A stretch of DNA of 64,000 bases from Termitomyces sp. T153 (lineage: Eukaryota > Basidiomycota > Agaricomycetes > Agaricales > Lyophyllaceae), in the NCBI GenBank assembly GCA_018296165.2, contig JACKQL020000005.1, positions 1,302,001-1,366,000 on the forward strand, read 5' to 3'. Numbering within the stretch: position 1 is the stretch's first letter; each line of letters opens with the position of its first letter. Under the pieces are notes generated by a model. It saw only the letters and a list, made by a program, of their open reading frames with translations, was not told where the DNA came from and searched no databases. The position numbers and the translations under genes are program-made. Below, piece after piece: positions 4,331-56,397 of this stretch.

Positions 4331-4917
4331 CGAGACTCTCAAGATGCGGGGAGTGGGTCGGGGATCGGCAGGGGCATGGGAGTCAAAACCAAGTAATATT
4401 GATCAATCCACAGCGAGTGATGGTGGTGTGGGAGGTGAAGTTGAAGCGTGGCCACTGCTTCATCAGGGGGTTCTTCCCAATCAATTAAAAAGCCTTGGAC
4501 GTACCCTGGGGCTTCCCAAATCTTTTGTCATGTCTTCTCCCAGTTACTCAGCCACTTTCCCTGCCCCGCTGTTTTCAGACACGGATGAGGTGATTGTGTA
4601 CAACAGCAAGGGGGAGGAGTTTGAGCATTGGCACCGAGCTAGTGCCATGGACCGGAGTCATGAGTAGTGTCAACTTGTTTTCTCAGGGTGGCTGATGGAG
4701 TTTTGCAGAGTTGTCTGCAGTGGTGGTGGGTTCCTTGGGAGGTCCTAGGCAGGCCAAATTCCATCCCGTGATGCCCAGATTGGCAGCAGGAGACACAGAA
4801 GGGGTCCTACTGTTGCAGTGAATCCCTCAGGCAGAGGTGATGGCAGAGAAGTTTGCAAGGGCATTGGCACAAGCTTGGGGCCCCCCAATGCTAGAATGGT
4901 GTCAAAACAAGGCCTTA

Positions 4918-4966
4918 GTGAGTCTTGAGTTCTCTTTTGTCATGTGTGCTGACTAGTTGTTTTTAG
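4918..4966 (+). other. Intron 1 of the antisense gene (copy A)
   Basis: 49 bp with GTGAGT donor, GCTGACTAG branch region and TTTTTAG acceptor. The corresponding segments in B (28775-28823, 49 bp) and C (42180-42229, 50 bp) keep length, branch and acceptor, but both donors have changed from GTGAG to ATGAG. Confidence 0.75.
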
Positions 4967-5146
4967 TGTGTCCTCTGTGCATGGCAGGGTGAGGCCTGCA
5001 TTTTTGATGTGCCCTCCATGGGCTCACAATGTGACACTTCTGTCACAACCCATCCCCTGGATCCCCGCACATTGTCCAGCAACCTCCCAATTCCCCAAAA
5101 TCCCCGACACTCCGCCAAACCTCCGCCCATGCCCCGCGCCTATTTT

Positions 5147-5230
5147 GGTTAGCTCCGAGGCAACCTCAGCTAACTCTGAGGCCTCCCTGGCTAACTCCGA
5201 CAGCCCCCTGGCCAACTTTGACGCCTTCCC
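5147..5230 (+). promoter_or_regulatory. Four 21-bp repeats in U3
   Basis: Four consecutive 21-bp units sharing a GCTAACTC(C/T)GA core lie about 275 bp upstream of the TATA box. The same array is found in the solo LTR at 8691-8774 and in degraded form in other family II LTRs. Regular spacing near two helical turns suggests repeated protein-binding sites; this is inference. Confidence 0.6.
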
Positions 5231-5504
5231 CACAGCCACTGACACTTACCCTGGATCTCCCGAACCCCAAGAACCACCCCCGCTGTTCCCGATCTTTGCC
5301 ACTCATCATCAACTCAACACCCTGGTTCCTCCAACCCATTCCGGAGTATCACAACAACCTTGGGGCGACCCGCATTCCCAAATGATCCCATCAACGTATC
5401 AGCATGGCCCGACCCTCGATTGCAACTGACACCCACCCACTCCGTCAAGCTCCGCCAAGCCCCACCGCTGCAGCTGACATACTCCAAAGTTCTCTGGTAG
5501 TCAG

Positions 5505-5512
5505 TATATAAG
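5505..5512 (+). promoter_or_regulatory. TATA box of solo LTR 1
   Basis: TATATAAG, 32 bp before AGTCTTGATATT, the segment complementary to the family's primer-binding site. The element transcript probably starts there. The same TATA-to-AGTCTTGA spacing is seen in the LTRs at 8583, 12016 and 50573. Confidence 0.75.
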
Positions 5513-6961
5513 ATGTTGAGTAGCTCTTTGTACTCTAGTCTTGATATTGCTTAACGTTACCTATAGTCTGATTGTTTCCTTCTTGTGTTTTGTTTTCCTT
5601 ACTATCAGTCTCCCGGCCTTATCTCAGTCTCCCGGTCTTATCTCAGTCTCCCGGTCTTATCTCAGTCTCCCGGTCTTGTCTTGTCTCCATTTTGTTATCA
5701 TTCTTGTCATTGTTTCGTATCTCCACTCGAATCTACTCTTGTTCCATATCAACTCATCTCATTTCGTCTGACGCTGTCTCGGTGACTCCGTCCAACTGTT
5801 GTGCCCAAGTCTTCCTCAAACTTAATGACCTCATGAACTCTGCAATTACAATTACGAATCCCAACACTCTTTCACCAGGTCCGAACCTCGCTCTTTGCTT
5901 GGTCCTGGACTCCATCAACTCCAATTGATCTTCCATCAAACTCCAGCTCTGCTTCCATTGATTGCATAGCTGCCTACTCCTTCACGTCTGCAAATCTCCC
6001 ATATGGTCTTCTGCCTGAACCCTGCCAAGCCCGTCCCGTTTCCTCACAATCTGACTTCTCTGGACTTTCCCGGACCTGTCCGGATCACATCCCACCAACT
6101 ATCCACACAAGCCATCAGTGCCCAGAACGCTTTCGAGTGTTCAGTTGCCAGTGCAAGGGGATCACGCCCACCTAGTAAGGACTCGCCCAGTGCAGCTGAG
6201 CCCCCAGGGTCAGTAGAACCTGACAACTTCCATTTGCCTTCCATGTTGCACGAGCCACAGGAAGTGCTCGATTTTGTTGGAGTGGCAAGTGGCATGCATT
6301 GCCATGGAGCAGGGGTGGGACAAGGACTGGGTGTGGGGTCAGCTGGGCAAGGTGCATAAGACCTGGGTGTTGGGGGAGGGGAGCGCAGGGCAGTCTGCGG
6401 GGAAGGTGGGGCCTCTGCAGGGTGGGCAGAGGGAGGGGGCATCCTTGGTGGCGGACCATGAGAAGCAGAGAGCTTCTCCACTGTCAGGGGTGGGGCCCAG
6501 CAAGAGGCCATGGGGGCACAAGCCAATGGTGGGGCCTACAGGGTCTCACATTTACTCTTCTACCCTGGGCATGCCCTTGGAATGGGTGTCAAGTTCTCTG
6601 GAGCCTGCGCCTTTGATCATGGAGGTCCTTCTTTGCAAGCAGGTGGAGGTTCTAACGGCAGCATTGATGGCACGGAAGGGGGAGCTCCAACGGGTGAGGG
6701 AGGATTGAGACACGGCATGAGTGGAGAAGGAGGCATTGGAGTGGGCATGGAACATCTCAGTATGAGTGGCAATGGAGTGAGCATTAAAGGTACGGGGCTT
6801 GCAGGAGCGTCTGATGCAGTGGGAGGTGCAGCCCATGGAGGAGGTGGAGGAGCAGGGAATGGTGCTGGAGGGTGGTTTGCTGTGGGCGGAGTTGGAGGCA
6901 GCAAGATGGAGGGAGGATTGGCTGGCCAATGAGGCTGCTTCAGGGCGCATGGGGATCCTTT

Positions 6962-7018
6962 GTAAGTGTCTTTCCCAATTCTCTGCCTGTTACTAAAATA
7001 GGTCGTTTTTGGGGTCAG
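6962..7018 (+). other. Intron 2 of the antisense gene (copy A)
   Basis: GTAAGT donor, TTACTAAA branch region and CAG acceptor before ACTGGG. The corresponding segments are 29617-29665 in copy B (ends TAG before ACTGGATC) and 43091-43139 in copy C. An acceptor at 7001 is also possible. Confidence 0.65.
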
Positions 7019-7320
7019 ACTGGGTGCAGAAGCACTAGGTTCTCTTGAATGGTGCCTTTGCAGCATTTGCATCGATCCAAGATGGGTTGGCACAGATGTT
7101 CCTGGGTCAGCCTCTGGAGTTGCAGCAGGGGATGGCAAGGGTGGGGAGGTTGCTGGTGGGGCATTGGCAATGTAATGCTGTGGCCCCGGGGTTATGGTGG
7201 GAAGTGGCAGCGGACACGGGGGAGGCTTTGCTGGAGTTGGCAAAGGTCTTGGCAGTGGTGCGGGCCCAGATGGAGATTGATTTGGGGGTAGGGATGGCAG
7301 GGCTTCTGGAGGAAGAATGA

Positions 7321-20812: not shown

Positions 20813-20945
20813 ATCAAAGTGAGGATAAGAATTTGAAAAGGGCGGACACAAGGGATGGATGGACGAGTAGACAGAAACGTTCGAAAGCTGTTTGATGCGG
20901 CGTATTGAAAGGATCATCTTTGTCAGATGCATATCGAACGAGGTC

Positions 20946-21340
20946 AGGGTCGATTGGTCCAACTCGATCCCATCAGGTCCAACTCGATCCCATCAATGAT
21001 CAGATCAACCAACAATTTAGCACTTGCTGTGAGGCGGTGGACAGCTTGTTTATCTTCCGGTCATTCCAATAAAAAACAAAATGAAATTTAACAGACGGGC
21101 TAACTTCGTGGCCCTTGATTGAGCTGAAGTGTGGAATCCTAAGCATAACACAAACCTCTAGGCTTACACTGACCGAACCCAAAAATTAACGTTAACGTTG
21201 ACCCAGCACGCAATGTTACTCATGTTGGTGTATTTTTCCCAGTGGTTGTTTACACTTCGTGTTTTGACAGGAACCAACACCTGTCAAGATCCTTCAAAAT
21301 AAGGTTCATTGATGGGATCGAGTAGGACCAAATCGACCCT
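20946..21340. mobile_element. MITE-like inverted-repeat element
   Basis: 395 bp bounded by ~35-bp terminal inverted repeats. The left end begins AGGGTCGATTGGTCCAACTC and the right end (21306-21340) is its near-perfect complement, ending ACCAAATCGACCCT. At the left end an inner 20-bp unit (GGTCCAACTCGATCCCATCA) is doubled. There is no transposase inside and no clear target duplication. It lies exactly between the two hydrolase paralogues. Confidence 0.6.
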
Positions 21341-21548
21341 TCCCTCGGTGCTAGATTAGCAAAGGTAACAGCGCTTGGTGATAGGGAATCTCGGGGTCCT
21401 CCTTGTCCAATCAATAATTAAGTAGCTTACACACGTTCCTCCCCATCCTTCCTTCCTAAATCAACGCCACGTTATGCGATAAATCTTTTGAAGTCAGCTC
21501 AATTCGAGATCTCGTAATCTGGTAAATACATACGTGATGTGTTACAAT

Positions 21549-22828
21549 TTATTCAAAGCCCGAGGCAAAAAAGTCCAAAATCAAAGGGGTCAGGTCATTC
21601 TGGACCTTCTGGGGCCATAGTAAGAAATCAAAATACGGATCATCGTGTATACCATGCTTCTGAAGGATGAACTGCATTCTGGGATGTTTCTTGCTCAAAT
21701 GGTCCGCCACGGCAGCGATCTCGTCCCTCAAGCACTCCGCATCACCATCCGTGACGAATACACGCCGCACAACCGTCGACAGATCCATAAACCAGTCTTC
21801 GGGCGCATAGTATGGCTCGAGGTACGAGCGGTACTTTTCTGGTACGCCATCAAGGACGATACGTCCCCAATACGTCAGTGCCTTGATGCCAACGGAATCG
21901 CTATCATCATTTGTAATCATAGAACCGGTTTTGCCTGTGAGAGATACCCAAGGGGACATGAGATAAACGCCACTAAATGGAGCAGTTATAGTGAGGCGTG
22001 GGACGTCCGTGACAGGATGGAGCATATGTGAGAGGAGCTGAAGCACAAGGTTCCCACCAGCAGAGTCGCCTGTAAGTTGGATATTCTGCGGTTCGACACC
22101 CATAGAGATAAGGTGCTGAACGGCAAGGACAGCTTGCTTAAGCTGCGTAGGAAACGTTGCGGTTGGTACAGGTGCTAAGTAGTACGAATTACTGTAATCT
22201 TCTCACACATACTTGTTTTTATATGGAAACTTACAATATTGAAGCAGGGCGAAACCGGTTTTTTTGCCTTTTGCCTCTAGCTCACTCCGAACAAGTTTCC
22301 AGAACGATAAAACAAAAAACGGCACGGAGACAAGAAAAGCTCCACCTGGCGAAGAGTAAATCAAAGTCCCAAAGGACTGGTCTTTTCTTGCGTACCATGG
22401 AAGTACAAAATGACGCGATCAGTGCGACGCTCTCCAAACCAAAGAAGTCGGCCGTTTTCGGCCAATTCGTCGGTCACGAGAGGAAACCCTTGGCTCTTCA
22501 TATAATTTTTGTACACTTCTTGTGTATCGCCGAGGACCCATTGCAACTGCTTTATGTTGAATCGTGCACTGAGGAAGTAGAACAGCCTGTCTCCAACTAT
22601 CCTCGTCCAGGTTTTGTGCTTGTTGGTACGATGAAAGGGTGAGTTTATGAGGGTCCAGCCAAGGAATAAGGCTATGTACATCACGATTCATCATTCAATA
22701 TTTAGTGTATGTTGTGTGAAGTGTGAGTAAAAAATATACGCACGCAAATACAGGATGATTGAGGCAACAGCACCCACTTTCTCTAGCAAAGAAGGGTTTC
22801 CACAGGACGTGTCTTTGACTGAGGGCAT
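21549..22828 (-). CDS. Alpha/beta hydrolase, steryl acetyl hydrolase-like (spliced)
   Basis: A paralogue of the gene at 19668. Exons on minus: about 22672-22396, intron 22346-22395, 22345-22235, intron 22175-22234, 22174-21549. The upstream exon is uncertain; a candidate ATG is at 22826-22828 (MPSVKDTSCGN) and the acceptor is at 22673. Splicing joins HG to GGA for the oxyanion hole. Further motifs are GDSAGGNL (nucleophile Ser), AECLRDE (acid, Glu) and GIHDDP (catalytic His). The family works on acetyl or acyl esters, often at the ER. A hydrophobic segment, MMYIALFLGWTLI, near the start may be a membrane anchor. No stop or frameshift was seen from 22672 on. Confidence 0.75.
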
Positions 22829-28109: not shown

Positions 28110-28323
28110 TCACCCCACCTTCAGTGTCAAGACCCTTGAGGTGCATGACATGGGTTTGGAGATCAGTGGGGATATGGGAATCAAAGCTCAAGCAATATTT
28201 ATCAAACTGCAGCAAGCAGCAGCATGGGGAGTGAAGTCAAAGCATGGCTACCATTTGTCAGGGGGTTTCTTCCAATCAAATAAAAGGGGCAGACATACCC
28301 TGGTATGCCCTGACTTCTTCAAA

Positions 28324-29980
28324 ATGTCTTTGTCCTCAGCCCCAGTGTCAGCAACCTCATCATCCCTGACTTCCCTGCTATCAGATGACAATTGTGTCAA
28401 TGTTTGGGCTGAGTACAAGAGCTGGCAAGAGGAGTTTGACCAATGCCAAGATAAGTGGAGAGTGAACCAGATGTACTGGAGTCATAAGTGTGGCAGTTCC
28501 TCACCTGTTGCTGTGCTGACTCAGTGGAGTAGAGTTGTCCATAGCAGTGGCAGGCCCATTTGGAAGTACTTCTCAAGCTTTGGAATTGTTGGCATGATTA
28601 GCCCTGGCTTCTTTGACATGTTTTTCAAGGCCTAGTCTGGAGCTAGGAATGGTCCAGGTTGTTCTGGAGGCATAGAGAGTTCCCTAAGTGGAGGTGATGG
28701 TAGAAGTGTTTGTGAGGGTGCTTGAGTGGGCATAGGGTCCCCCAACTTTGGAGTGGTGTTAGAATGAGGCCCTGATGAGCTGTTGACATGTTCTACTTGC
28801 ATTCTGTACTGATCATTGCCTAGTGCACCCTCTGTGCCTGATGGGAGGAGTTGTGCAAGTTTGATGGGCCAACTGTGGGGTCCCACTGAGATTTGTTGGT
28901 CTGCCTTCCATGTTGTTTGAGGCACAATAAGTGTTCAATTTTGTTAGAGTGGTGCATGGCCTACATTGCTGCAGAGCAAGGATGGGAGTTGGATTGGGTT
29001 CAAGGGCAATTGGGGGTGGCAAGGAAGGTGAGAGTGCTGGAGAGTGGTGCAGAGCATCTGATAGGGAAAGTAGAGCCCCCATAGGGTGGGCAGAGGGAGA
29101 GAGCTGTGGTAGCATGTGACAAGGAGAAGAGAAGAGCCTCTCTGTTGCTAGAGGCTGAGCCCAGCAAGAGGCTGTGGGGTGAGGTGTCAACAGCAGGCCC
29201 TCCAGAGTCACAGGTGTATTCTCCTGGCTCAGAAGTGCCAGTGGATCAGTCTGCAGAGTTGCTGTGGTTAGTTCCTGAGGCCTTTTTGCATTGCCAAGTA
29301 GAGGGGTTACAGAGGTTGCTGGGAATCTGCAAGGAGGAGGCCTGGAGGGTTGGAAGGAAGCAGGATGCAATGCAGAGGGAGCAGGATGCAGTATGGCAGG
29401 AGTTGGAGGCTGCTATGCAGATGGCCACAGAACAATCATTGGAGGTGCAGGAGCTGTGGGAGCAGCTGGAATGGGGGGAGGTGCAGGCAGAGCAAGAGGC
29501 AGAGGTGAGGCAGGGCACCCCTGAGGCTGGGGTGTCCCCTGCATTATTGGAGGCTGCACAGAGGCAGGGGGAGTGGCTTGCCAATGAGGCAGCCTCAGGG
29601 TGGAGAGAAATAATGCATGAGTTTCTTTTTCTTTCTACTTCAATCCTACTGATATAACCTTATAGACTGGATCTGTGAGCACAGGATCCTCCTTGATAGA
29701 GCAACCACTGCTTTTGTGTTAATCCAGGCCAGGCTGGCATGGATGCCTGGAGATCATCCAGCTGGGCCAAAGTGTGAGTTGCATAGGGAGGCTGCTGGTA
29801 GGGCATAAGCAGAGGAATGTGATGGAGCCCAAGTCATGGTGGGAGTTGGTGACAGATATGGAGGAGCCCCTTCTGGGTTACCCAGAGACACTGGCCATGG
29901 TTGTGGCCCAGATGGAGGTGGACCTAGTGGGAGGGAGGGGGGGAATAGCAGGAATGGTTCTGGATGAGGAGGGGGAGTAG
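28324..29980 (+). pseudogene. Antisense accessory gene of family II copy B
   Basis: ATG at 28324 (MSLSSAPVSATSS), exon 1 with a W-x-EFDQC segment, intron 1 28775-28823, exon 2 starting with Cys spaced CX2CX6CX15CX2CX6C (two stops inside), then EQGWELDW and the best-preserved part, 29106-29616: EKRRASLLLEAEPSKRLWGE, a coiled-coil-like Glu/Gln-rich stretch (about 60 residues) and EWLANEAASG. Intron 2 is 29617-29665; the tail ends at 29980 with an acidic EEGE. The 3' end lies ~250 bp from the chromodomain codons on the other strand, so the two genes converge. A DNA- or chromatin-binding role is inference from the Cys pattern. Confidence 0.7.
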
Positions 29981-30249: not shown

Positions 30250-30445
30250 CTTAGTAGAGTGTTGTTAATAGAAGTCCCAGAGTTTGGCAGGGGCTCCAAA
30301 GATGTTTTTGCAGGTTTTCAAGTGTTGTCCTCTCCATAGCCTTTCCAATGGACCAGATAGTGGAGTCAACTATGGACAAGGTAGGAGTCAAGGATTTGGT
30401 CAACTTTGTAGTGATACTTGCCCTTAACTTCAATGGGGGGCAGTT
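30250..30445 (-). pseudogene. Chromodomain of copy B
   Basis: On minus, YHYKVDQILDS, HYLVHWKGYG and EDNT with the WEP region changed to a stop-KP. This is the chromodomain pattern (aromatic residues, WKGYG, TWEP) at the pol C-terminus of chromoviruses. Copy C has the same at 43690-43890. Confidence 0.75.
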
Positions 30446-30649
30446 GGCTGGAACATTTTCCAGGGAAGGGGTCTGGAGTGTACTTCTTGAGGAGGTGGAT
30501 GTGAAAAACAGGGTGGAGGCCCTTCAGGCCTGGAGGCAGGTTGAGCTTGTAAGTATGGGTTGAGACCTTCTAGAGGATTTTGAAGGAGCCAAGTCACTTA
30601 TGGTCAAGCTTGACAGAGGGCCTCTGGATCTTGAGGTTACATCAATTGA

Positions 30650-31480
30650 GCCATACTAAAGTGCTAGGGGACTAGTCAGGGGTGGAGTCACATTGGGCAT
30701 CAACCTGCTTGGAGTAGGCTTGATTGGTAGTGTGGTTTTGTCTTGGAGGAACTGGTGGAGGGACTGGAGGTCTTCAGCAACTTTGTGGGTGACATGGGAG
30801 GGGATGTCCTTGAGGGATAAGATGAGCTGGGGGTTGTAGCCCTTATTGGCATAGAAAGGAGAAGACTCCAGTGGCAGAGTGAGGCATATTATTATAAGTA
30901 AACTTGGCAAGGAGAAGCTCTGCATGCCAGTCATTCTATGAATAGTTAACATAGAGGCTGTTCCAAGGTCTGGTTTACTTGTTCAGTCTGTGCATTGGTC
31001 TCTAGGTAGTAGGCAGTCAATGGGTTGGTCTTTATTTTGAGAGCCTTGCATAATAATTGCCAAAAGCAGGAGATGAACAATGGGCTGTGATTGGAGATGA
31101 TATTGTCCAGGAGTCTGTGCTTGGAGAATATGTATTTGAGGAATAGTTTGGCAAACTCTGGAGCATTGTCAGTGGTGTGGCAGAGATGAAAAGGGCTTGT
31201 TTGGTGAGGTGGCAAATGATTACAAAGATTGTGTTGAAGCCCTCAGAGTTAGGAAGTTTGACAATGTGGCCCATTGATATTGAGGACCAGGGGCAGCAAT
31301 CAATGGGGAGGGGCTTTAGCAGGCTATAGGGGCAATTGTGGGGTACTTTGGCCTGGAGGCATGGTTTGCAGGCCCTTATGTATCATGTGACATCCTTCTT
31401 CATTCCTGGCCAAAAGTAAGTTCTAAAAAAGAGTTCAAGAGTCTTATAAATCTCTAGATGGCCTTAGAGCTTGTGATTGT
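30650..31480 (-). pseudogene. Integrase of copy B
   Basis: In order on minus: GHLEIYKTLELFFRTYFWP and C-x2-C (ACKPCLQAK) of the zinc-binding module (31350-31480), PNSEGFNTIFVIICHLTKQALF, FSKHRLLDNIISNHSPLF and NAQTEQVNQTLEQ, the last containing the conserved Glu region. The second catalytic Asp is Asn (SNHS). Frame changes occur near 31215 and 30950. Confidence 0.8.
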
Positions 31481-31723
31481 GGTGCTGCCAGAATATGTTG
31501 AGGCAAATGGACTTGTAATCCAGAGCATAAATGTGTCCTTTCCAGAGTAGAAAACAATGGTCCAGAGATAGTACAAAGGATTGGTTGATGGCTGGCTTGT
31601 CAGCAGAGTTGTTGCAGGGGTTGTGCTGGGTGAAGAAGGAGTCTGAGGGTGCATTTTTGATTTGGTGGAGGATTCCTTGTTCATTCATAATCAGCATGGT
31701 ATGCAGATGCTCAGGGGGGATTA

Positions 31724-32102
31724 CTACTCAATGGTTAAATGCATTCCACTCCACCTCAAATGACTTCTTTGGATACATATTAGGCCTCCAGGTAAGGGCA
31801 TTGGGTTTTGCACCAAGTCATCTGGGGCAATAGTGGATGGTGAAGTCATACTCTGAGAGGGTTTTGGACCAGCAAGTCTGATGGTGGCTGAGTTGTTCTG
31901 TGGTGGTGAAGTATTGCAAGTTATTATGGTTGGAGTAGACTTGGATGCAGTGTGAGGATCCCTTGAGGTAGGCCCTCCACTGCCAGAAGGCTTCAACAAT
32001 GGCAAGGAGTTCTTTATTGTAAATGTCATAGTTGAGCTCTGCAGAGATCATTGAGCAGATGTAGAAGGCAACAGGGCAGAGATCTTTGCTGCCAGAGTCC
32101 AT
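31724..32102 (-). pseudogene. RNase H of copy B
   Basis: SGSKDLCPVAFYICSMISAELNYDIYNKELLAI and HCIQVYSNHNNLQYF correspond to the P-V-A-F-x-S, YxxxxKELLA and D-H-x-N-L blocks of Gypsy RNase H, the Asp of the last block being Asn. The frame is open over 94 residues. Confidence 0.8.
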
Positions 32103-32459
32103 TTGGGAGAGGATGCTAGTAATGGTGTAGTTGGAGGCATCACATTCAAGTATATCAGTAGGGAGGGGTCAAAATGGTGGAGAATTGAGATGGAGGTGAA
32201 GGCTTCCTTGAGGAAGGTGAACACACTTTGGCACTTACTGTTCCAGTTCCAAGAGGTGTCCTTCTGAGTGAGTTGATTGAGGAGTTTGGTGATTCCAGAG
32301 TAGTTGTTAATGAACCAGCAATAAAAGTTAGCAAGCCCTAGGAATGACTGTACCTCCTTGACATTCCAGGCCAGAGGCCAGTTGAGGATGGCCTTGACCT
32401 TAGTAAGGTCCATGTGTATGCTGTCCAGGGTGACAATAACTCTGAGGTATTTAACTTTC

Positions 32460-33205
32460 ATGGTTTGGAAGGAGCACTTTTTAGGTTTGGCATGAAGGTG
32501 GTACTCCCAGAGTCATTCTAGGATGTGGCAGACATGCTCCAGATGTTCCTCCAGTGAGTTCAAGTAGATCAGAATGTTGTTCAGATACACAATAATGAAG
32601 ACATTGTTCATGTTGTGAAAGATGTTGTTTATGAAGTACTGGAAAGTGGCAGGGGAGTTAGTCATTCTGAAGGGCATCACTAGATACTCAAAGAGGCTGT
32701 AGTGGGTGCAGAAGGCAGTCTTGCATTCATGCCCTGGAGCAATCTGGACATTGTTGTAGCCAGAGCAGAGGTCTATTCTTATGTAGATCTTGGCATTGCA
32801 AAGGTGGTCAACAAGGTCTCTGATCAAAGGGAGAGGATACTGGTTCTTTTTGGTGACTTTGTTGAGTCCCTAGTAATCAACACAGAGTCAGAGGGAGCCA
32901 TTCTTCTTGGCAAACAGGACTGGAGCTCTGGTGGTGGAGATTGAGGGGCATATAAAACCTTTGCCAAGCATGTTGTTAAGGTAATTCTTCAGGGCTTAGA
33001 GTTCAATTTCTGACATGTTGTAGATCTTGCCAGATGGGGGGAAGGTGCCTTCTTTGAGATCAATTTTGTGATTGTAGGAGTGGTGTGGGGGAAGTTCTTT
33101 TGCACTCCCTTCAGAGAATACATCAGCAAATTTATGATACTCTGGGGGAACTACTTTGTGTAGGATTTGTTCCTGTCTTTTGTTCCAGTGAGGTAGTTTC
33201 TGCAT
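32460..33205 (-). pseudogene. Reverse transcriptase of copy B
   Basis: [20 protein letters not shown] at the start (33130), LFAKKNGSL, NQYPLPLIRDLVD, IYIRIDLCSGYNNVQI, FEYLVMPFRMTNSPATFQ and VYLNNILIYLN. The catalytic pair Asp-Asp is Asn-Asn. Stops interrupt 32830-33000. The upstream linker to the protease is split by LTRs at 33379-35790. Confidence 0.85.
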
Positions 33206-33378
33206 GTAGATATTCTTCTAGTAGGGCTGGCATGATTTGAAGTTGGAAAGCAGCAGTACTGTCTTGTAGAATGTGTGCAAAGGGGATGGCACCAATGATT
33301 CTGATGTCAAGAGCTTCTAGATCAATGGGGGTGGGTGTTGGAGTAGTGGCAGCTAGGTCCAGAATTGTGGCAGGGTTG

Positions 33379-35723
33379 TGTCAGGTTCCACTGACCACAG
33401 AGGCTCAGCTACACTGGGCAAGTCCTTACTAGGTGGATGTGATTCCCTGCACTGACAACTGGGCATTTAGAGGTGTTCCAAACACTGGGGACTTGTAAGG
33501 ATAGTTGATGGAGATTGATCTGAGCAAGTCTAGAAAGGTCTGGAGGAGTAGGGAACAAGCTGTGGGAAGGGGGACAGGCTTGGCAGGGTTCAGGCACAAG
33601 TCTGTATGCAAGTATTGTGGGTGTGGAGGAGGCTGTCAGGTTCTGCTGACCTCGGGGGCTCAGCTGCACTGGGCGAGTCCTTACTAGGCGGGCGTGATCC
33701 CCTTGTACTGATAACCAAACACTCGAAAATGTTCTGGGCACTGATGGCTGGGCACTGATGGCTGGTGCGGGTAGTCGGTGGGATGTGATCTGGACAGACC
33801 TGGGGAGGTCCGGAGAAGTCAGATTGCGAGGAAATGGAAGGTCTTGGCGGGGTTCAGGCAGAAGACCGTATGGGGGGATTTGCGGAAGCAAAGGAGTAGG
33901 CAGCGGTGTGATCAATGGGAGCAGAGCCGGGGTTTGATGGGGGATCAATGGGAGTTGATCGAGTCCGGGACCGAGCGAAGAGCGAGGTTCAGACCTGGTA
34001 AAAGAGTGTCGGGGTTTGTGATTGTAATTGCGGAGTTTGTGAGGTTGTTTAGGTTGATGAGGACTTGGGCACAATGGCCAGATGGAGTCACCGAGACAGC
34101 GTCAGACAAAATGGAATGGGGCTGATATGGAACAAGAGTAGATTCGAGTGGAGATATGAAACAATAACAGGAACGATAACGAAATGGAGACAAGACAAGA
34201 CCGGGAGACTGAGATAAGACTGGGAGACTGAGATAAGACTGGGAGACTGAGATAAGACTGGGAGACTGAGAGTAAGGAGAATGAGACACAAAACACAAAA
34301 CACGAAAGGGAAACAATCAGACCATAGGTAATGTTAAGCAATATCAAGACTAGAGTACGAAGAGCTACTCGACGACTTATATACTGACTACCAGAGAACT
34401 TCGGGGTATGTCGGCTGTGGTGGCGGGGCTTGGCAGAGTTCGACGGAGTGGGTGGGTGTCGGTTGCGATTGGGGATTGGGCCATGCTGATACGTTGATGG
34501 GATCATTGGAGAACGCGGGTTGCCCCAAGGTTGTCGTGATACTCCGGAATAGGTCGGAGGAACCAGGGTGTTGAGTTGATGATGGGTGGCGAAGATCGGG
34601 AACAGCGGGGGTGGTTCTTGGGGTTTGGGAGATCCAGGGTAAGTGTCAGTGGCTGCAGGGAAGGCATCGAAGTTGGCCAGGGGGCTGTCGGAGTTAGCCG
34701 GGGAGGCGTCAGAGTTAGCCAAAATAGGCGCGGGGCATGAGCAGAAGTTTGGCAGAGCGTCAGGGGTTTTCTTGGGGGTTGGGGTTGCTGGGCGATGTGT
34801 GGGGGTTCAGGGGACAGGTCGTGACAGAGGCAGAGGCTACATGAGTGATGGAAGTGGAGCCAGAGTTTGATGGAGAATCAATAGAGGTTGAGAGAGTTCA
34901 GAGCTGAGTGTGTAGCAAGGTCTGGAGTTGGTTAAAGAGTGTCTGGGATTTGTAATCATAATTGCAGGGTTCATGAAGGTGTTAAGGTTGGGAAAGATAG
35001 GAACATGATGGATGGGACAGATCAAATGAGACAAGACAGAGTTGAACAAAATGAGACAGAGTTGAGACAAGATGGAGACAAGAACAAGAATAGATTCAGG
35101 CAGAGATACAAAATGATAATGAAAACAATAACGGAATAGAGATGAGACAAGATTGGGAGACTAAGAGTAAGAAAACAAGACACGGAACATGAAACACGAG
35201 AGAGAAACAATCAGACCATAGGTAATGTTAAGCAATCTCAAGACCAGAGTACGAAGAGCTACTCTATGTCTTATATACTGACTACTGGAGAGCTCTGGGG
35301 AACGTTGGCTGTGGCGGTAGGGCTTGGCAGAGCTCAACAGAGTCAACAGGTGTTGGTTACAATTAGAGGGCGGGCTGTGTTGATGTGTTGATGGGATCAA
35401 TTGGTGATGTGGGCTGTTCTGAGGTCATCATGATACTCCAAAGTAAGTTGGAGGAACCAGGGTGTTGAGTTGATGATGTGTAATAGGGTTAGGCACAGCA
35501 GGGGAATGGTTCCAGGGGCTCAGGAAATCCAGGAAAAGCATTGCTGACTGCAGGGAAGACGTCAGAGTTGGCCAAGGGGCTGTCAGAGTTAGCTGAAAAT
35601 GTGTTGGAGTTAGCTGGAGTAGGCACAGAGCACTGTGGAAGTTCAGTGAAGCATTGGAGGAGGTTCTGGGGGGGTGGGGGGTTGTTGGGCAATGTGCAGG
35701 GGTCCAGGGAATGGATCATGACA
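33379..35723 (-). repeat. Family II LTR inserted in copy B, itself split by a younger solo LTR
   Basis: The outer LTR occupies 33379-33633 and 34832-35723 (TGTCAGG to ATCATGACA in plus reading) and is strongly CpG-depleted. Its TATA/RNA-start block is near 35240-35280. No clean target duplication was found at the outer edges; a further LTR end follows at 35724-35790. Confidence 0.75.
33634..34826 (-). repeat. Family II solo LTR 3, young, TSD GAGGC
   Basis: 1193 bp, TGTCAGG...GTCGTGACA, with GAGGC on both sides (33629-33633 and 34827-34831). CpG-rich. It contains four ~20-bp units (GGGAGACTGAGATAAGACT) at 34200-34270. Inserted into the older LTR of the same family. Confidence 0.95.
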
Positions 35724-35790
35724 ATGGGTACTCTGGGGAGGTGTAGGGCTGCTGGGGAGAGGTCTGGAGGCCTGGGAATGAGTTGTGACA
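35724..35790 (-). repeat. Terminal fragment of a family II LTR (short variant)
   Basis: 67 bp ending GAGTTGTGACA, closest by eye to the end of the short LTR at 28050-28109. The pol linker resumes at 35791 (ATCATTAGTC, compare AGCATTGCTGATT in copy C near 46870). Confidence 0.6.
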
Positions 35791-36039
35791 ATCATTAGTC
35801 AGGATGCTGCAGGCCTTTGTATTGATTCCTGGGTGTGTTGGGAGGAAGCTATTGAGTTTTATTCAAGGAGAATCAGGGCAGAGGTGTGCTTTTCTCCCTT
35901 TCTTGGTTGTCCTTGAGAGTTGAGAGAGCTTGGATTGCTCTGGAGGTGCTGGAATCAATGCTGGGGACATTGGAGTTCAAGGAGGACTGAATGCAGAGGA
36001 GGATGGTGGCTGCTAGGCTTGCTCCAGGGCCTGTGAATT

Positions 36040-36460
36040 GTATTGTGAGGTTCTTTCAGTCAATGTTGGGGTTGACATCCTGCAGCCAAGAGAGTCCAAG
36101 CACAATTGGAGTTGATTCTGAAAGCTGAGTGATAAGGAGCCAGACCTGAAATCTTAAGTTGTTGTCAAGGATGAGGGCATTGTCATGGTATTGGGTGATT
36201 CCAGTTGAGGTGGGGCTTTCATTGAAGAGCTGGAGCTCAGGGGTTTGTCAAGGGTGTTGTGGGAGAGATCAAGCTGACTGCTAACAAAGGTGCTGGAGCC
36301 TCCACTGTCAACAAGGGCAGGGAGGACTATTGAGAAGCTGTTGAGCCAAACAGTGATCATGTGGACTTCAAATGGAGCTGTGGAGGGTCTAGGAAATGTC
36401 AATTGTGCCTTCAGAGCCCTTGGAGTGGAGTGAGACATCAAAGGGAACTGGTCCAGAGTT
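36040..36460 (-). pseudogene. Second retropepsin-like domain of copy B (PR2)
   Basis: On minus: LPALVDSGGSSTFVSS with an intact catalytic Asp-Ser-Gly (about 36300), GITQYHDNALILDN and STPIVLGLSWLQDVNPNID (about 36060-36130), the second half-site signature. It lies directly downstream of PR1 in coding order. Frameshifts occur near 36240-36330. Confidence 0.75.
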
Positions 36461-36479
36461 TGTTAGGCTATCCTGGTTG

Positions 36480-36850
36480 AGATGGAGAGTGAGGCTGGGC
36501 CAGTTAATGCAGGAGTTGGTAGGGCAAAGCCATGAAAAGCCTAGGACAATGGGAGTGGAGATGTGTAATTTGGTGACTAGTAGCTAGAGGTCCTGTTCTT
36601 GTTCATTGGCATAGGTCACAGTCATTTCCATGCAGTGTGTAATGTCTCTGGTGGAAGTAGGATTGCTGTCAAAGAGCTTGAGGAGGCCAGGGGTGGGGAG
36701 GCATCAGAGGTGTTGGGGAGCAAGTGCTACCAAGAATTTGTCAATGAAGTTATTGGTGGTGCTGCTATCAACTAGAGTGGGGATGGAGTTGGGGGAGGAA
36801 GAGAGGGTGGTGCAGAGGAGGAGGGTGGGGAAGGTGTATGAGGGGAGGTG
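36480..36850 (-). pseudogene. First retropepsin-like domain of copy B (PR1)
   Basis: On minus: IPTLVDSSTTNNFIDKFLVAL (Asp present, Gly to Ser), DITHCMEMTVTYANEQEQDL and TPIVLGFSWLCPTN. It is separate from PR2 and related to it in layout: catalytic loop, flap region, IVLG-x-x-WL-x-x-x-NP. Confidence 0.75.
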
Positions 36851-41765: not shown

Positions 41766-43454
41766 ATGTCCTCCTTTGCATATTCCTCAGTAGCATCCCC
41801 ATCCCTCTTGGCACAATCCTCTTCTTCTTTCTCTGAGGACTCCAAGAGTTGTTGGGATTGCAGACATGTCCAGGTGATGTATTACAGTCATAAGTGCAGT
41901 TTTGTTCTTCATGCTCTGAATGCTGACAGAATCTTGGCAGAGTTGTCAGTGGCAGTGGCAGGGCCCTCAGAGCTTTCATCAGGGGGGGTCCCAGCACAGT
42001 TGGTGGCAGGAGTGGCCTCTGCCTTGCATTCCAGGCCTAGTCTTGGTCTGGGGGTAGTCTGCCCCATTCCTACAGGTTCAAGAGTTGTGCAGGTAGAAGT
42101 AATGCTGGAGCAGTTTGCAGAGGCCATAGGGCAGGCGAGGGGTCCCCCAATATTAGAGTAGTGCTAGGTGGTGGCCCCCATGAGTAATTGACACATTTTC
42201 TCCTTTTCCAAGCTAATCCGCTTCCATAGTGCATGTTCTATACCTAGTGGGGAGAGCAATGTGAGTTCAAGGAGCCTATGCCAGAGGTGCAGCAGGACAT
42301 GTTGGTGTGTCTCCCATGTCACTTGCAGCATGAGAGTGCTCTGTCACTCTGAGCTGGCATGCTGCCTGTGTTGCAGCAGAGCAAGGATAGAATGGAGAAT
42401 AGGCTGCAGCATAGCTGGAGGAGGGCTGGAGGGGCAGAGTGTTGGGGTGGGGTTCTGGAGTAGGGGGAGGGGGCAGCATGGGGCAGTCCATGATGAAGGT
42501 CAGGCCCCTGTGGAGTGGATAGAGGGAGGGGGCCCCTGCAACACATGATAAGGGTAAATAGAGGGCATCCCCTTTGCCGGAGGTGGGGCTGAGTAAGTAG
42601 GCATAAGGGGAGCAGGTGATGGCAGGCCCCCCTGGGCCCTGCAGTATATTTCCTGACCTTCAGGGCCCTAGTTGAGCAGTCTGTGAGGAGGTCATGGTCA
42701 GCCACCAAGGCTTTTCTGCAGCATTGGGTGGAGGAGTTGGAACAACTATTGGCCACTTGCAGGGAGGAGGCTTAGAGGGTAGGGGAGGAGGGATGGGATC
42801 TAGAGGAAGTGGGACAAGGCTTGGAGAGAGAGAGATGCAGTGTGGAGGGACAAGGACATAGCTGTGAGAACTGCCACAGAGCAACTGTCACAGCTTCAGG
42901 AGCTGTGAGCATGGATGGGGCCATTGGAGGCACAGGCAGAGATGGCAGTGTGGTGGGTGGAGGGCTCAGTTGAGCAGGGGAATGAGGGGGCATCCCATGT
43001 AGGGGTCTCCAGGATGTTGGTAGAGGTGGTGAGGAGGTGGGAGGAGTGGCTTGCCAACAAAGGTGACCTCAGAATGGAGAGGGATTCTCTATAAGTTACT
43101 TTGTTCTCACTCCAGCTCTCTTTTTGCTAATCTAATGAGCTATATTGGGCCAGGAAGCACCTGATTCTCCTTGACAGAGCATCTGCAGTGCTCATGTCAA
43201 TCCACAATGGGCTTTCAAGAATATGTGGGGACCTCTCACTGGAGTTGGGCTAGGAGGTTGGGCAGATGGGTTGTTTGCTAGCAGAACACTGGCAGAGTGC
43301 CATGGTAGATTCTGGGGCATAGTAGGAGGTGGCAATGGATGTGGAGGAGCTGCTCCTAAGACACTTAGAGGTCCTGGTGGTGGTGGTGGCCCAGCTGGAG
43401 GTGGAAATAGTGGGGAGGAGGGTGGGAGTGGATTTGGAGGAGGATGAGGAGTAG
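41766..43454 (+). pseudogene. Antisense accessory gene of family II copy C
   Basis: ATG at 41766 (MSSFAYSSVASPSLL). Exon 1 ends EQFAEAIGQARGPPILE, matching EKFARALAQAWGPPMLEW of copy A. Intron 1 42180-42229 (donor decayed to ATGAGT). Exon 2 keeps CX2(Tyr)X6CX15CX2C: the second Cys has become Tyr and the last Cys is lost by frameshift. WEEWLAN before intron 2 (43091-43139) and an acidic end VDLEEDEE, stop at 43452-43454. Same layout as copies A and B, more decayed. Confidence 0.65.
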
Positions 43455-43689
43455 GGAGACTCTTCTTGGGACTTAATTCCTTGCACCCCATGTCTGTACC
43501 TTGTAGCATTATGCAGTCTTAGTAGCACATATATAAGATTGTTCTTGGACTTCCAGCCTGGGAAATGGAAATTTTTCAGTGTCACATGAGGAGGAGTGAG
43601 TAAAGCATATAGGAGTACTTGTGGGAGTTGAATTCCTAGTAAATCTAGAGGTGGGGGTTACATCCACTAATACCATCTGTGTTCACTAG

Positions 43690-43890
43690 TCCCAGGAGTC
43701 CCAGGGCTTGGTGGGGTGCCATCAATGAAAGTCCCAGAGTTCATTGGGGGCTTCATCAAAGTTTTTTCAGGGTTCCCAAGTGTTATCCTCAGGTCCATGG
43801 CCCTTCCAGCAGACCAGGTACTGGGGTCAGCTACAGACTATGTAGGAGTCAAGGATTTGGTCACCTCATAGTGGTATTCATCCTTGACTT
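43690..43890 (-). pseudogene. Chromodomain of copy C
   Basis: DEYHYEV and then, after a frameshift, ILDSYIVC, PQYLVCWKGHGPEDNTWEP and NELWDFH: a clear chromodomain with the three aromatic positions and TWEP. Arg positions are Cys, Trp or stop. It recruits the integration complex to modified histones in related chromoviruses. Confidence 0.8.
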
Positions 43891-43959
43891 TGACAGGGGG
43901 CAGTTGACTAGGGTGTTGCCTGGAGAAGAGGTCCAGGGCATGTTTTTTAAGGAGTTGTA

Positions 43960-44950
43960 CATGGAATATGGAGTGGAGGCCCTTTAGGCCCAGGAGTAGA
44001 TTGAGCTTGTAGGCATGTGTGGAGACCTTCTAGAGGACTTTGAAAGGGCTGAAGCATTTGTGATTGAGCTTGATAGAGGGCCTCTAGATCTTGAGATTGT
44101 ATTGATTGAGCCAGACTAAGGTGCTGGGGGGCCAGTCAGGAGTCAGTTTGCATTGGGTGTTGGCATGCTTGGAGTAGGCTTAATTGGTGGTGTTGATCTC
44201 ATTCCAGAGAAACTGATGAAGGAATCAGAGATCTTTGGCAACTTCATAGGTGACATGAGAGAGAATGTCCTTGAGGAATAGTGTAAGCTGGGGGTGGTAG
44301 CCTTTATTGGCATAGAAAGAGGAAACTCCAGTGGTGGAGTGTGGCATGTTGTTGTAGGTAAACTTAGTGAGGAGGAGTTCTGCATACCAGTCATTCTGTA
44401 AATAGTTAATATAGAGGTGGAGATACTGTTCCAATGTCTGGTTTACTTATTCTGTCTGTTCTTTGGTCTCTGTGTGATAGGCAGTGGAGAGATTGGTTTT
44501 TATTTTGAGTGCCTTGCATAGCAATTGCCAAAAATGGGATATGAACAGAGGTCCATGGTCAGAGATGATGTCATCTAGGAGTCCATGCTTGGAGAATACA
44601 TGTTTGAGAAATAGTTTGGCAAACTCTGGAGCATTGTTGGTGGTGTAGCAGGGGATGAAGAGGGCTTGCTTGGTGAGGTGGCAGATGATGACAAGGATTG
44701 CATCAAAACCTTCAGAGTTGGGGAGTTTGACAATATAATCCATTGAAATTGAGAACTAGGGGCACTAACTGACAGGGAGGGGCTTCAATAATCCATGAGG
44801 GCAGTGGTGGGGTACCTTGGCCCAGAGACAAGGTTCACAGGCCCTTATATATTGCATGGCATCCTTCTTCATTCCTAGCCAAAAGTAAGTCTGGGAGATG
44901 AGCTGAAGAGTCTTATGAATTCCTAGGTGCCTGCAGAGCTTGTGGTTGTG
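43960..44950 (-). pseudogene. Integrase of copy C
   Basis: In order on minus: LPNSEGFDAILVIICHLTKQALFIP (from 44743), FSKHGLLDDIISDHGPLFIS with Asp kept, TAYHTETKEQTE with the Glu region kept, NDWYAELLLTKFTYNN and the GPY/F-like region. The zinc-binding part is around 44820-44950 with CEPCLWAK-type Cys. Broken near 44440 and 44220. Confidence 0.8.
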
Positions 44951-45299
44951 ATATTGCTGGAGTATGTCAAGGCAAATGGACTTTTGGTCTGGAGCATAAA
45001 TTCATCCACTCTGGAGCAGGAGGCAGTGGTCCAGAAATAGCATAAAGGGGTTTTTGGCATTTGACTCTTTGACAGAGTTGTTGCAGGGGTCATGCTGGGT
45101 GAAGAAGGAGTCCAGGAGTGAGTTTCTAATTTGGTGGAGGATCCCTTCTTCATTTAAAATCAGCACAGCATGTAGATGTTTGGGGGAGATTACCACTCAA
45201 TAGTTGAACACATTCTGCTTAGCCTCAAATGACTTTTTTGAATACACATCAGACCTCCACATGAGGGCATTGGGTTTTGCACTGAGTCATCCAGAGTGG

Positions 45300-45600
45300 T
45301 AGTGGATGGTGAAGTTGTACTCCAAGAGGGTTTCAGACTATCAAGCTTGGTGGCAGTTGAGTTGCTTTGTAGTCATGAAGTATTGCAGATTGTTGTAGTT
45401 GGAGTAGACTTGAATGCAGTGAGGGGATTCCTCAAGGTAGGCCTGCCACTGACAGAAGGTTTTGACAATTGTGAGGAGTTCTTTGTCATAGATGTCACAG
45501 TTGAGCCCTGCAGAGATCATCAAACAGGTGTAGAAGGCAATAGAGCACAGGTCCTTGCCTCTGGAGTCTGACTGAGAGAGTATTCCAGCAATGGCATAGT
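45300..45600 (-). pseudogene. RNase H of copy C
   Basis: GKDLCSIAFYTCLMISAGLN, CDIYDKELLTIV and HCIQVYSNYNNLQYF. The Y-D-K-E-L-L block with the catalytic Glu is intact; the later Asp-His is Asn-Tyr. Confidence 0.8.
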
Positions 45601-46720
45601 CAGAGGCATCACATTTGAGCACAATTGGCAGGGAGGGGTCAAAATAGTGGAGGACCAGAGCAGAGGTGAAGGCCTTCTTGAGGAGGAGGAATACACTCTG
45701 GCATTTGCTGTCCCAATCCCAAGAAGTGTCCTTCTGCATAAGTCAGTTGAGGAGTTTGGTGATCCTGGAGTAGTTGTAGATGAATTGGTGGTAAAAGTTA
45801 GCAAAACCCAGGAATGACTGTACCTCTTTGATGTTCCATGGCAGGGGCCAGTTGAGTACAGCTTCAATCTTGGCAGGGTCCATGCACACACTATTGGGAG
45901 TGATGATGACTCTGAGGTATTTGACCTCCATTGTGTGGAAGGAGCATTTCTTGGATTTGGCATGGAGGTGGTACTTCTGGAGTTGCTCTAAGATACAGTG
46001 GACATGCTTCAGATGCTCCTCCAGTGAATTTGAGGAGATCAATATGTCATCCAGGTACACAATAGCAAAAACATCATTTATATTATGGAAGATGTCATTC
46101 ATGAAGTACTGGAAGGTGATGGAGGAGTTAGTCATTCCAAAAAGCATTACTAGGTACTCAAAGAGGCCATAGCAGGTGTGAAAAGTGGTCTTCCATTCAT
46201 GTCCTGGAGCAATCTGGATGTTGTTGTAGCCAGAGCAGAGATTGATCTTTGTGTAGATCTTGGCACTGCAGAGACAGTCAACAAGGTCTCCAATCGGGGG
46301 AGGGGATACTGGTTCTTTTTGGTGACTTTGTTGAGTCCCCAATAATCTACACAGAGTTGGAATGATCCATCCTTCTTCTTGGCAAACAAGACTGGAGTGC
46401 CAGTGGCAGAGATTGACAGGCATATGAAGCCCTTGTTGAGCATATTGTTGAGGTACTCCTTCAGGGCCCAGAGCTCAATCTTGAACATGTTGTAGATCTT
46501 ACCAAACAGGGGTGAGGCACCTTCTTCAAGGTTGATCTTGTGGTTGTAGGAGCAGTGTGAGGAAAGTTCCTTGGCACTCCCTTCAGAGAACACATCAGCA
46601 AATTCATAATACTCTGGAGGAACTACTTTATATAGGATCTGTTCCTCTGTTTTGCACTCTGGCAGGGTAGTTTCTGCATAGAGGTGCTCCTCTGGTAGGA
46701 CTGGCATGATTTGCAATTGG
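45600..46720 (-). pseudogene. Reverse transcriptase of copy C
   Basis: [20 protein letters not shown] (start, 46620), [53 protein letters not shown] and IVYLDDILISSNSLEEH with the catalytic YLDD intact, then KKCSFHTMEVKYL and WPLPWNIKEVQSFLG. One frameshift near 46300 separates two long open pieces. The best-preserved family II RT here. Confidence 0.88.
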
Positions 46721-47084
46721 AAGGTGGGGGTGCCATCTTGTAAGATGCATGCAAAGGGGACAGTGCTGATGATTTTATAGTTGAGGTTTCCAGAGTTGAC
46801 AGGGGTGGGTGATGGGGCAGCAGTGGTTGAGTCTGGAGTGGTAGTGGAATTGTTTGGAGGGTTTGAGCATTGCTGATTGGGGTACCACAGGCCTTTGTAT
46901 CAATTCCAGGATATGTTCAGGGGCAGCCATCATAATTTGATTGAGGGTGACCAAGGCAGGTGTGCATTTTCTTCTCCTTCTGGGTCACTGTTAAAAGTTG
47001 AGGGGCTTTGGGTTGCTCTAAAAGTGCTGGCGCCAGGGTCAGAGATGTCAGAGCCCAAGATAGACTGGAGGCAGAGGAGGATGG

Positions 47085-47445
47085 TGGCTGCTAGATCTGC
47101 TTCAGGGCCAGGAAATCACATGGTGAGGTTCTTCCAGTTGATGTTGGAGTTGACATCTTGTAGCTGTGGAAGTCTGAGCATAATTGGAGTTGATGGGGAG
47201 AGTTGGGTGATAAGAAGCTGGGCCTGAAACTGCAGGTCATTGTCAAGAGTGAGGGTGTTGTCATGATATTGAGTGATTCCTGTCATGGCAGGGCTTCTGT
47301 CAAAGAGTTGGAGCTCAAGGAGTTTGTTGAGGTTGTTGTGTCAGAGGTTGAGTTGACTACTGACAAAGGTGCTGGAGGTACTGCTGTTGATGAGAGCAGG
47401 GAGGACTTTGGGCAAGCTGTTGAGTCAGACATTGATGACAAATGA
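47085..47445 (-). pseudogene. Second retropepsin-like domain of copy C (PR2)
   Basis: VLPALINSSTSSTFVSSQLNL (Asp to Asn, Gly to Ser), GITQYHDNTLTLDNDL and STPIMLRLPQLQDVNSNINW. Aligns with PR2 of copy B, which keeps DSGG. Confidence 0.75.
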
Positions 47446-53919: not shown

Positions 53920-54420
53920 GACTAGGCCCAAGTTGCATCAGTTGACCCCATCAAGACATACATCCATTTGTTACCCCTTGGAGAAGAGCCTGTGGTGCTC
54001 ACTGTTGCTAAGGATTTCCAGTCACTCTGGTCTATAATGATGCTAATTAACAACAGAGAGGAAATTGAATGCATCACTAATAGCAGTTTCCAAATTATCT
54101 CAATGTCTGCCAAAATTGCTAGCAACCTTGACTTATCTTACAACCCTAGCATTGTGTTGAATATGCAGAGTGCCAATGGAACTATGGATCAATCACTAGG
54201 ACTTTCTCACAATGTTCTGTGCACCATTGGTGATATAATTCACAGATACATTTTTTACAATCCCCCACCTATGACATCTTACTTGGTCACTCATTTGATG
54301 TTTTAACCAGGAGCATGGTCAGCACCCTTAACAGCATCAAGACCACCATTACTATCATGGACCCAAACACTGGCATACAACAAATGATACTAACTTTTCC
54401 ATGTGGTAAATCAAAAAGAA
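53920..54420 (+). pseudogene. Protease region of family III
   Basis: LWSIMMLINNREEIECITNSSFQIISMSAKIA, in which ITNSS stands where an Asp-x-Gly active site is expected, then LNMQSANGTMDQSLGL and the IGDI-type flap and YLVTHLMF end. Layout of a retropepsin-like domain in basidiomycete Gypsy elements; the active site is lost. Confidence 0.65.
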
Positions 54421-56395: not shown

Positions 56396-56397
56396 GC

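What the first reader, a model, noticed from the sequence alone, without database searches (positions are those of the whole stretch)
28324..29980. A spliced antisense gene conserved in three family II retrotransposons
Copies A (4530-7320), B (28324-29980) and C (41766-43454) each carry, on the strand opposite gag-pol, a gene with the same start region, two introns at the same places (intron 1 49/49/50 bp; intron 2 about 57/49/49 bp) and the same end. Shared protein segments (GPP-LEW, EQGW, EK-RAS, SKR, WLANEAASG) survive although the copies are decayed. Sequence shows: position, introns, shared segments. Inference: an element-encoded accessory protein with its own promoter, possibly regulating transcription, silencing or targeting.
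Basis: partly seen in the sequence, partly recalled or inferred. Interest (0 to 1): 0.85.

Follow-up and report, generated by a model that had tools for sequence, protein, structure and literature searches.

The report
Spliced antisense gene in fungal retrotransposons
Retrotransposons of a termite-farmed mushroom carry an extra gene on the strand opposite their own replication genes; selection has preserved its protein, even in a lineage that has lost the replication genes, so it probably helps the element control its own activity.

Summary
Window copies B and C are CpG-decayed members of a large Ty3/chromovirus family in a Termitomyces genome. In 90 of 104 listed pol hits the antisense gene lies just 3' of pol on the opposite strand. 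It has three introns, not two. Diverged copies show purifying selection in the exon frames (pN/pS 0.16-0.50; 0.63-0.67 between the most distant subfamilies), mostly below neutral simulations with CpG decay. The protein has a cysteine-rich module resembling fungal Zn2Cys6 but below Pfam's cut-off, a basic stretch and a predicted long coiled coil. All listed database relatives are Termitomyces.

Correction: copy A is not opposite gag-pol. It belongs to a pol-less, non-autonomous lineage whose youngest family (98-100% identical copies) keeps the gene. All five sequenced members other than A, two of them from that youngest family, lack the cysteine module, yet the lineage shows selection.

Most likely it is an element-encoded nuclear regulator, working like HTLV HBZ or plant Grande/Retand antisense proteins. 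Splicing, expression and DNA binding are not shown. New variant of a known kind.

The parts
28110..28122 (.). polypurine tract (on the minus strand) next to the inner end of the 3' LTR of element B (LTR ends ...TGACA at 28109)
   Evidence: alignment of 16 of 20 genome loci (L084 poorly aligned) and the 3 window copies; sequence
28110..28323 (+). leader of the antisense gene, copy B; putative core promoter with TATA-like block about 28279-28286
   Evidence: between subfamilies 1 and 3 the leader is 80-83% identical, the gene about 65%; promoter function inferred
28324..28483 (+). exon 1, copy B (ATG at 28324)
   Evidence: model P0003
28533..28774 (+). exon 2, copy B
28824..29616 (+). exon 3, copy B: cysteine module remnant, basic stretch, coiled-coil region
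29666..29980 (+). exon 4, copy B, stop TAG 29978-29980
30306..33377 (-). pol of element B (RT to integrase); its first part lies beyond a nested insertion, at about 35987-36499
   Evidence: tblastn with L069 pol pieces
41766..43454 (+). antisense gene, copy C (introns about 41890-41940, 42180-42229, 43091-43143)
43689..47217 (-). pol of element C, convergent with the antisense gene
   Evidence: tblastn, 64-72% identity to L069 pol
4530..7320 (+). antisense gene, copy A, split by an inserted reverse-oriented LTR (about 5041-6225); lies in a pol-less element

Best explanation
The feature is a real, spliced protein-coding accessory gene of a Termitomyces chromovirus family, on the opposite strand between pol and the 3' LTR and convergent with pol. 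It is probably transcribed from its own promoter in the conserved leader beside the 3' LTR. Its product is most likely a nuclear, coiled-coil, cysteine-module (Zn2Cys6-like) regulator that acts on the element's own LTR or leader, tuning transcription or protecting the element from silencing. A pol-less derivative lineage keeps a shortened version. Shown: position, intron positions shared between copies, selection in the exon frames, linkage. Inferred: promoter, splicing in vivo, zinc and DNA binding, target.
For: Linkage: 90 of 104 listed pol hits (104 scored of 3,741 candidates) have a gene hit on the opposite strand within 4 kb 3' of pol, 0 on the same strand, 0 on the 5' side. Selection: pN/pS 0.30-0.38 in the four pairs between subfamilies 1 and 2, about 1 or more in the other frames except reverse frame -1; 0 of 60 neutral simulations as low in each of 9 settings for three of these pairs. 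Exon 4 is constrained in its own frame (0.16-0.36 in six comparisons, 0.49 in the most distant); in L077 exons 3 and 4 lie in different frames, 55 bp apart, so a product of both needs a splice or a frameshift. Seven cysteines in 8 of 8 and an eighth in 7 of 8 diverse members chosen by me; weak Zn_clus match in 7 of 8 of these pieces, best E 1.2e-4. Helix 273-368 predicted, pLDDT block means 85-96 for residues 281-360. The gene is kept in pol-less elements: 39 of 40 scored interiors linked, lineage under selection.
Against: No RNA evidence. Zn_clus stays below Pfam's gathering score and AlphaFold2 leaves the cysteine region at low confidence. In the five sequenced pol-less members other than copy A the cysteine module is gone, so DNA binding through it cannot be the only function. 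Splice donors are eroded: GT at intron 1 in 15 of 20, intron 2 in 15 of 15 that have it, intron 3 in only 8 of 20 genome loci. In the module-less lineage the intron 3 donor reads AT in 5 of 5, yet exon 4 stays constrained. Recent pairs show weak or no constraint (L069-L072 dN/dS 0.86; L076-L077 pN/pS 1.51 on very few changes). Some simulations reached the observed ratio in three other pairs (see Tried and rejected).
Confidence: 0.6

Rival explanations
1. Anti-silencing factor: the protein binds the element's leader or LTR and counteracts cytosine methylation, as Arabidopsis VANC proteins do for VANDAL transposons.
For: Decayed copies are CpG-poor (window o/e 0.16), which suggests CpG methylation; young copies carry open genes and CpG o/e up to 1.12; the gene is kept by pol-less elements, which also need to escape silencing.
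Against: Young copies are CpG-rich simply because they are young. The cysteine module is lost in both sequenced members of the most recently amplified family. No methylation data.
Confidence: 0.2
2. Negative regulator of copy number: the antisense protein or RNA represses sense transcription from the LTR, as HBZ/APH do in HTLV; the form without cysteine module acts as a dominant-negative partner through the coiled coil.
For: Position beside the 3' LTR and spliced antisense layout as in hbz (PMC10186651, passages); APH proteins lack the bZIP domain and APH-3 and APH-4 still suppress LTR transcription (same passages), a parallel to the module-less form; long predicted coiled coil.
Against: No expression data; nothing here separates repression from activation.
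Confidence: 0.25
3. The open frame is a by-product: a non-coding antisense RNA or a constrained sense-strand RNA region, with no working protein.
For: The leader is more conserved than the gene (80-83% against about 65% between subfamilies 1 and 3). Reverse frame -1 also has a low ratio (0.42-0.51 in the four subfamily 1-2 pairs).
Against: Third codon positions diverge about twice as fast as first and second in the gene frame; reverse frame -1 shares those third positions, has the higher ratio in all four pairs, and is broken into shorter frames in L069. Exons 3 and 4 are each constrained in their own frame. 56 of 133 listed hits are open.
Confidence: 0.04
4. A captured host gene recently carried along by a few copies, with no role for the element.
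For: Gene transduction by LTR elements is documented (review PMC7264820, passages).
Against: Found in at least five Termitomyces strains at down to 32% identity to P0003, in several subfamilies and the pol-less lineage, at a fixed position, with selection. No host paralogue was recognised, though none was specifically looked for.
Confidence: 0.05

Closest known systems
Antisense ORFs between pol and 3' LTR of plant Retand/Grande/RIRE2 elements (TRP28 proteins, GENE23)
   Same: Position, orientation, presence in most recent copies, nuclear or DNA-binding role suggested (PMC11963269 and PMC7264820, passages)
   Different: Host is a basidiomycete; element is a chromovirus, Retand is not; protein is cysteine module plus coiled coil with no TRP28 match; three shared introns; frame-specific selection measured; kept in a pol-less lineage, mostly without the module
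brtn, antisense gene of Boty-like chromoviruses in Botrytis and Sclerotinia (Zhao 2011; only citations and short passages in other papers seen)
   Same: Fungal LTR element, antisense extra gene; the Boty gag-pol carries a chromodomain
   Different: brtn sequence is not held here, so homology is untested; ascomycete host
HTLV-1 HBZ and HTLV-2/3/4 APH proteins
   Same: Antisense, spliced, 3'-LTR-proximal gene; HBZ is a bZIP protein, a regulator type with coiled coil (recalled); APH proteins act without that domain (PMC10186651, passages)
   Different: No bZIP match here, fungal host, no sequence relation expected; function unknown here
VANC anti-silencing proteins of VANDAL DNA transposons
   Same: Element-encoded sequence-specific factor acting on the element (PMC10398659, PMC5735166: search listing and start of abstract only)
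   Different: DNA transposon, plant; no homology tested

Membership tests
Ty3/Gypsy chromovirus (host element of copies B, C) | RT, RNase H, integrase and C-terminal chromodomain in pol | tested here: met
   L069 pol: RVT_1 4e-37, RT_RNaseH 2.4e-33, rve 2.9e-9, Chromo 8.8e-15; B and C pol homologous to it
Ty3/Gypsy chromovirus (host element of copy A) | pol present | tested here: not met
   one weak tblastn hit only (31% over 105 aa, window about 3104-3412, plus strand, before the gene); colinear with the pol-less C16 element
Antisense accessory gene between pol and 3' LTR (aORF-3R) | opposite strand, 3' of pol, before PPT/LTR | tested here: met
Antisense accessory gene between pol and 3' LTR (aORF-3R) | present in most copies of the family | tested here: met
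   90 of 104 listed pol hits, the best-scoring of 3,741 candidates; the 14 unpaired were not inspected
Antisense accessory gene between pol and 3' LTR (aORF-3R) | own promoter and transcript | not testable with these tools
   TATA-like block and conserved leader only
Plant TRP28 antisense proteins (PF04195) | match to the Pfam model | tested here: not met
   not among the hits
Fungal Zn2Cys6 cluster (PF00172) | score above gathering cut-off (21 bits) | tested here: not met
   best bit score shown 19.7, for a piece; 19 of 34 members match weakly, best E 0.0052
Fungal Zn2Cys6 cluster (PF00172) | six cysteines CX2CX6C-linker-CX2CX6C, first half before second | tested here: inconclusive
   six cysteines present, linker 15 (10 in P0116); first block matches profile 13-35 in 4 of 5 pieces, second block gave no match as a piece (0 of 5) but matches 2-14 in whole proteins L069, L073, P0003, i.e. 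swapped order
Boty brtn | sequence homology of the protein | not tested
   sequence not held; no Botrytis protein among listed hits

The most novel reading that the evidence does not exclude
The gene encodes a transposon-owned DNA-binding factor built on a circularly permuted Zn2Cys6 cluster that opens or controls silenced LTRs. A pol-less LTR family has kept only this gene, stripped of its DNA-binding module, and spreads as a parasite of both the autonomous element's enzymes and its regulator: a regulator arms race inside one family of selfish elements.
Probability: 0.2. Interest if true: 0.85.

Novelty: new variant of a known kind. Interest (0 to 1): 0.62.

Why it matters
Antisense accessory genes of LTR elements have been suspected regulators for years without a tractable system. 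Here many near-identical open copies, a pol-less derivative that kept the gene, and measurable selection make the question testable. It also bears on how a fungal genome with strong CpG decay still hosts freshly amplified LTR elements.

Tried and rejected
Family searches: Pfam on decayed window ORFs gave no usable domain for the gene; NCBIfam nothing; PDB search with one protein nothing, with the cysteine-block profile four chains at E 0.8-1.6, three of them Zn2Cys6 proteins (PUT3 twice, CBF3 subunit B). A third homologue search restricted to the cysteine region found only Termitomyces (3 proteins). AlphaFold2 gave mean pLDDT 54.7, so no fold search was run. The idea that contigs starting at LTR ends mark telomeres was dropped: C112 starts a few bases inside an LTR end, as expected for assembly breaks at repeat borders. 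Non-coding explanation rejected on frame-specific selection.

Results against or weak: neutral simulations (CpG x1, x5, x20) reached the observed ratio in 1, 1 and 4 of 60 for L087-L077, 0, 2 and 1 of 60 for L079-L081 and 0, 0 and 1 of 60 for L082-L077. Homologue searches scored only about 8,000 candidates (349), and 21 of the 141 hits were not listed, so absence outside Termitomyces is not shown. Genome searches scored the best 104, 133 and 40 of 3,741, 1,561 and 535 candidates. The pairing used 77 of the listed rows (151 matches reported). One search used 13 of 20 fetched gene loci (those with a long open exon 3). In one search L082 dropped out because my pattern did not catch its exon; one search was a first try whose pattern missed several loci. 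In one search the subfamily 2 copy L079 matched the C16 element at only 71% over LTR end plus leader, less than the 80-83% quoted for subfamily 1.

Full report
WHAT WAS CHECKED. The window is G000:C5:1302001-1366000 of a 72.4-Mb assembly in 307 contigs. Protein relatives of the gene are all Termitomyces in the listed results (120 rows listed of 141; 40 of 40; 3 of 3). Gene copies L079 and L081 encode nearly the same proteins as P0069 and P0091 of strain T112 (98.8-100% per matched piece for P0069; 94-100% for P0091, the lowest over a gapped stretch), so the genome is probably T112 or close kin. The window is strongly CpG-depleted (observed/expected 0.16).

THE GENE. Aligned with 20 genomic copies the gene has three introns. 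Donor GT is present at intron 1 in 15 of 20 loci, at intron 2 in 15 of the 15 loci that have this segment, and at intron 3 in 8 of 20; every other donor, including all three in B and in C, reads AT. At intron 1 the broken donors read C|AT, as expected from CpG decay. The public model P0003 (strain J132) removes the same three introns (read); what evidence lies behind that model is not known to me.

LINKAGE. In a young copy (L069, LTR pair 96.1% over 487 bp) pol with chromodomain reads on the minus strand, and the gene on the plus strand ends 230 bp from the pol stop. One in-frame stop separates the protease part from the rest of pol in that copy. Genome-wide, 90 of 104 listed pol hits have a gene hit on the opposite strand within 4 kb on the 3' side, most at about 597 bp (distance from pol query end to gene query end), none on the same strand and none on the 5' side. 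Of 133 listed gene hits 56 have no stop. The 14 unpaired pol hits were not inspected.

SELECTION. In the four pairs between subfamilies 1 and 2 (L069, L072, L087 against L079; L087 against L081) pN/pS in the gene frame is 0.30-0.38 and dN/dS 0.17-0.24, with third positions differing at 44-47% and first and second at 19-25%. Other frames give about 1 or more, except reverse frame -1 (0.42-0.51), which shares the third positions. Against subfamily 3 the ratio is 0.63-0.67. Neutral simulations with CpG rates of 1, 5 and 20 never reached the value for the three subfamily 1-2 pairs tested (0 of 60 in each of nine settings); results for other pairs are under Tried and rejected. Exon 4 alone gives 0.16-0.36 in its own frame in six comparisons and 0.49 in the most distant. 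For the window copies, B and C against two young copies give 0.37-0.50, with 0 of 100 simulations as low in each of eight runs. Recent pairs show less or no constraint (0.44-0.86 within subfamily 1; L076-L077 1.51), as expected after insertion.

THE PROTEIN. Eight diverse members that I picked share eight cysteines, seven of them in 8 of 8 sequences and one in 7 of 8. Six follow CX2CX6C-X15-CX2CX6C (X10 in P0116). Pfam's Zn_clus is the commonest weak match (19 of 34 members, best E 0.0052; 7 of 8 short pieces, best E 1.2e-4); no reported score reaches the gathering score. The first block matches the second half of the profile (13-35) in 4 of 5 members tested as pieces; the second block as a piece gave nothing (0 of 5), but in whole proteins it matches the first half (2-14). 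That order suggests a circular permutation; it is a lead, not a result. A basic stretch follows (nuclear-signal-like by recall), then a helix predicted at residues 273-368, with pLDDT block means of 85-96 for 281-360.

LEADER. Between the polypurine tract and the ATG lies a conserved leader of roughly 210 bp with a TATA-like block about 40-45 bp before the ATG (16 of 20 loci and the three window copies aligned). Between subfamilies 1 and 3 the leader region is 80-83% identical, the gene about 65% and the matched LTR piece about 70%. A promoter is the natural reading but untested; the same stretch is also the sense 3' end, so other roles are possible.

THE POL-LESS LINEAGE. A locus on C16 (L077 with L089) has LTR pieces 96.2% identical, 4.9 kb apart, and no gag-pol hit. 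Its interior was scored in 40 places of 535 candidates, 35 of them full-length at 98-100% identity, and 39 of the 40 have the gene at 853-909 bp. Among the 60 best gene rows, counted by eye, 57 are open. The five sequenced members L075-L077, L082 and L083 lack the cysteine module and intron 2; only L076 and L077 belong to the 98-100% family, and whether its other copies lack the module was not read. L075, L082 and L083 are colinear with the C16 element past the stop, where autonomous copies have pol; their remaining interiors were not fetched. Within this lineage pN/pS is 0.23, 0.28 and 0.32 (L075, L082, L083 against L077) and 0.46 for window copy A, downstream piece only, with 0 of 100 simulations as low in each setting. 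Copy A is colinear with this element, still has part of the cysteine module (read), and has no pol beside it. One thing is unexplained: the intron 3 donor reads AT in all five sequenced module-less members, yet exon 4 stays constrained.

MECHANISM. Steps shown: a protein-coding gene with shared intron positions, linked to pol, under selection, and kept by elements without pol. Steps inferred: own promoter, splicing in vivo, nuclear action, zinc and DNA binding, effect on the LTR. Keeping the gene without gag-pol argues that it serves the element's expression or its escape from silencing and is not a helper of reverse transcription alone. Whether it activates, represses or protects cannot be told.

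KNOWN KINDS. [quoted passage not shown] the original paper was not seen). HTLV HBZ and APH are the functional model (PMC10186651, passages). My ten paper searches listed no title that reports this gene in Termitomyces or another mushroom; most subscription papers are not in that library and most listed papers were not opened. Hence: new variant of a known kind.

Noticed in passing
19668-22202: Two neighbouring minus-strand open frames with a GDSAGGN motif (recalled as alpha/beta hydrolase, HSL-like) look like a tandem gene pair among the repeats.
   Followed up: no
G000 contigs C10, C109, C112, C181, C241, C289, C306: Seven contigs begin about 1.6-1.7 kb before the antisense exon 3, i.e. at the LTR border of the element (sequence checked for C112 only); probably assembly breaks at repeat borders.
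   Followed up: partly
L075, L076, L077, L082, L083 intron 3: Splice donor reads AT instead of GT in all five sequenced module-less copies although exon 4 stays under selection in its own frame.
   Followed up: partly
33377-35987: Pol of element B is interrupted by a nested insertion that carries LTR sequence 81% identical to that of the pol-less family.
   Followed up: partly
54410-59654: Further plus-strand open frames that look like pol of other LTR elements (by eye), not examined for antisense genes.
   Followed up: no
P0048, P0062: Public gene models of strain T112 run the antisense gene on into what reads as the antisense of pol, probably an annotation artefact.
   Followed up: partly
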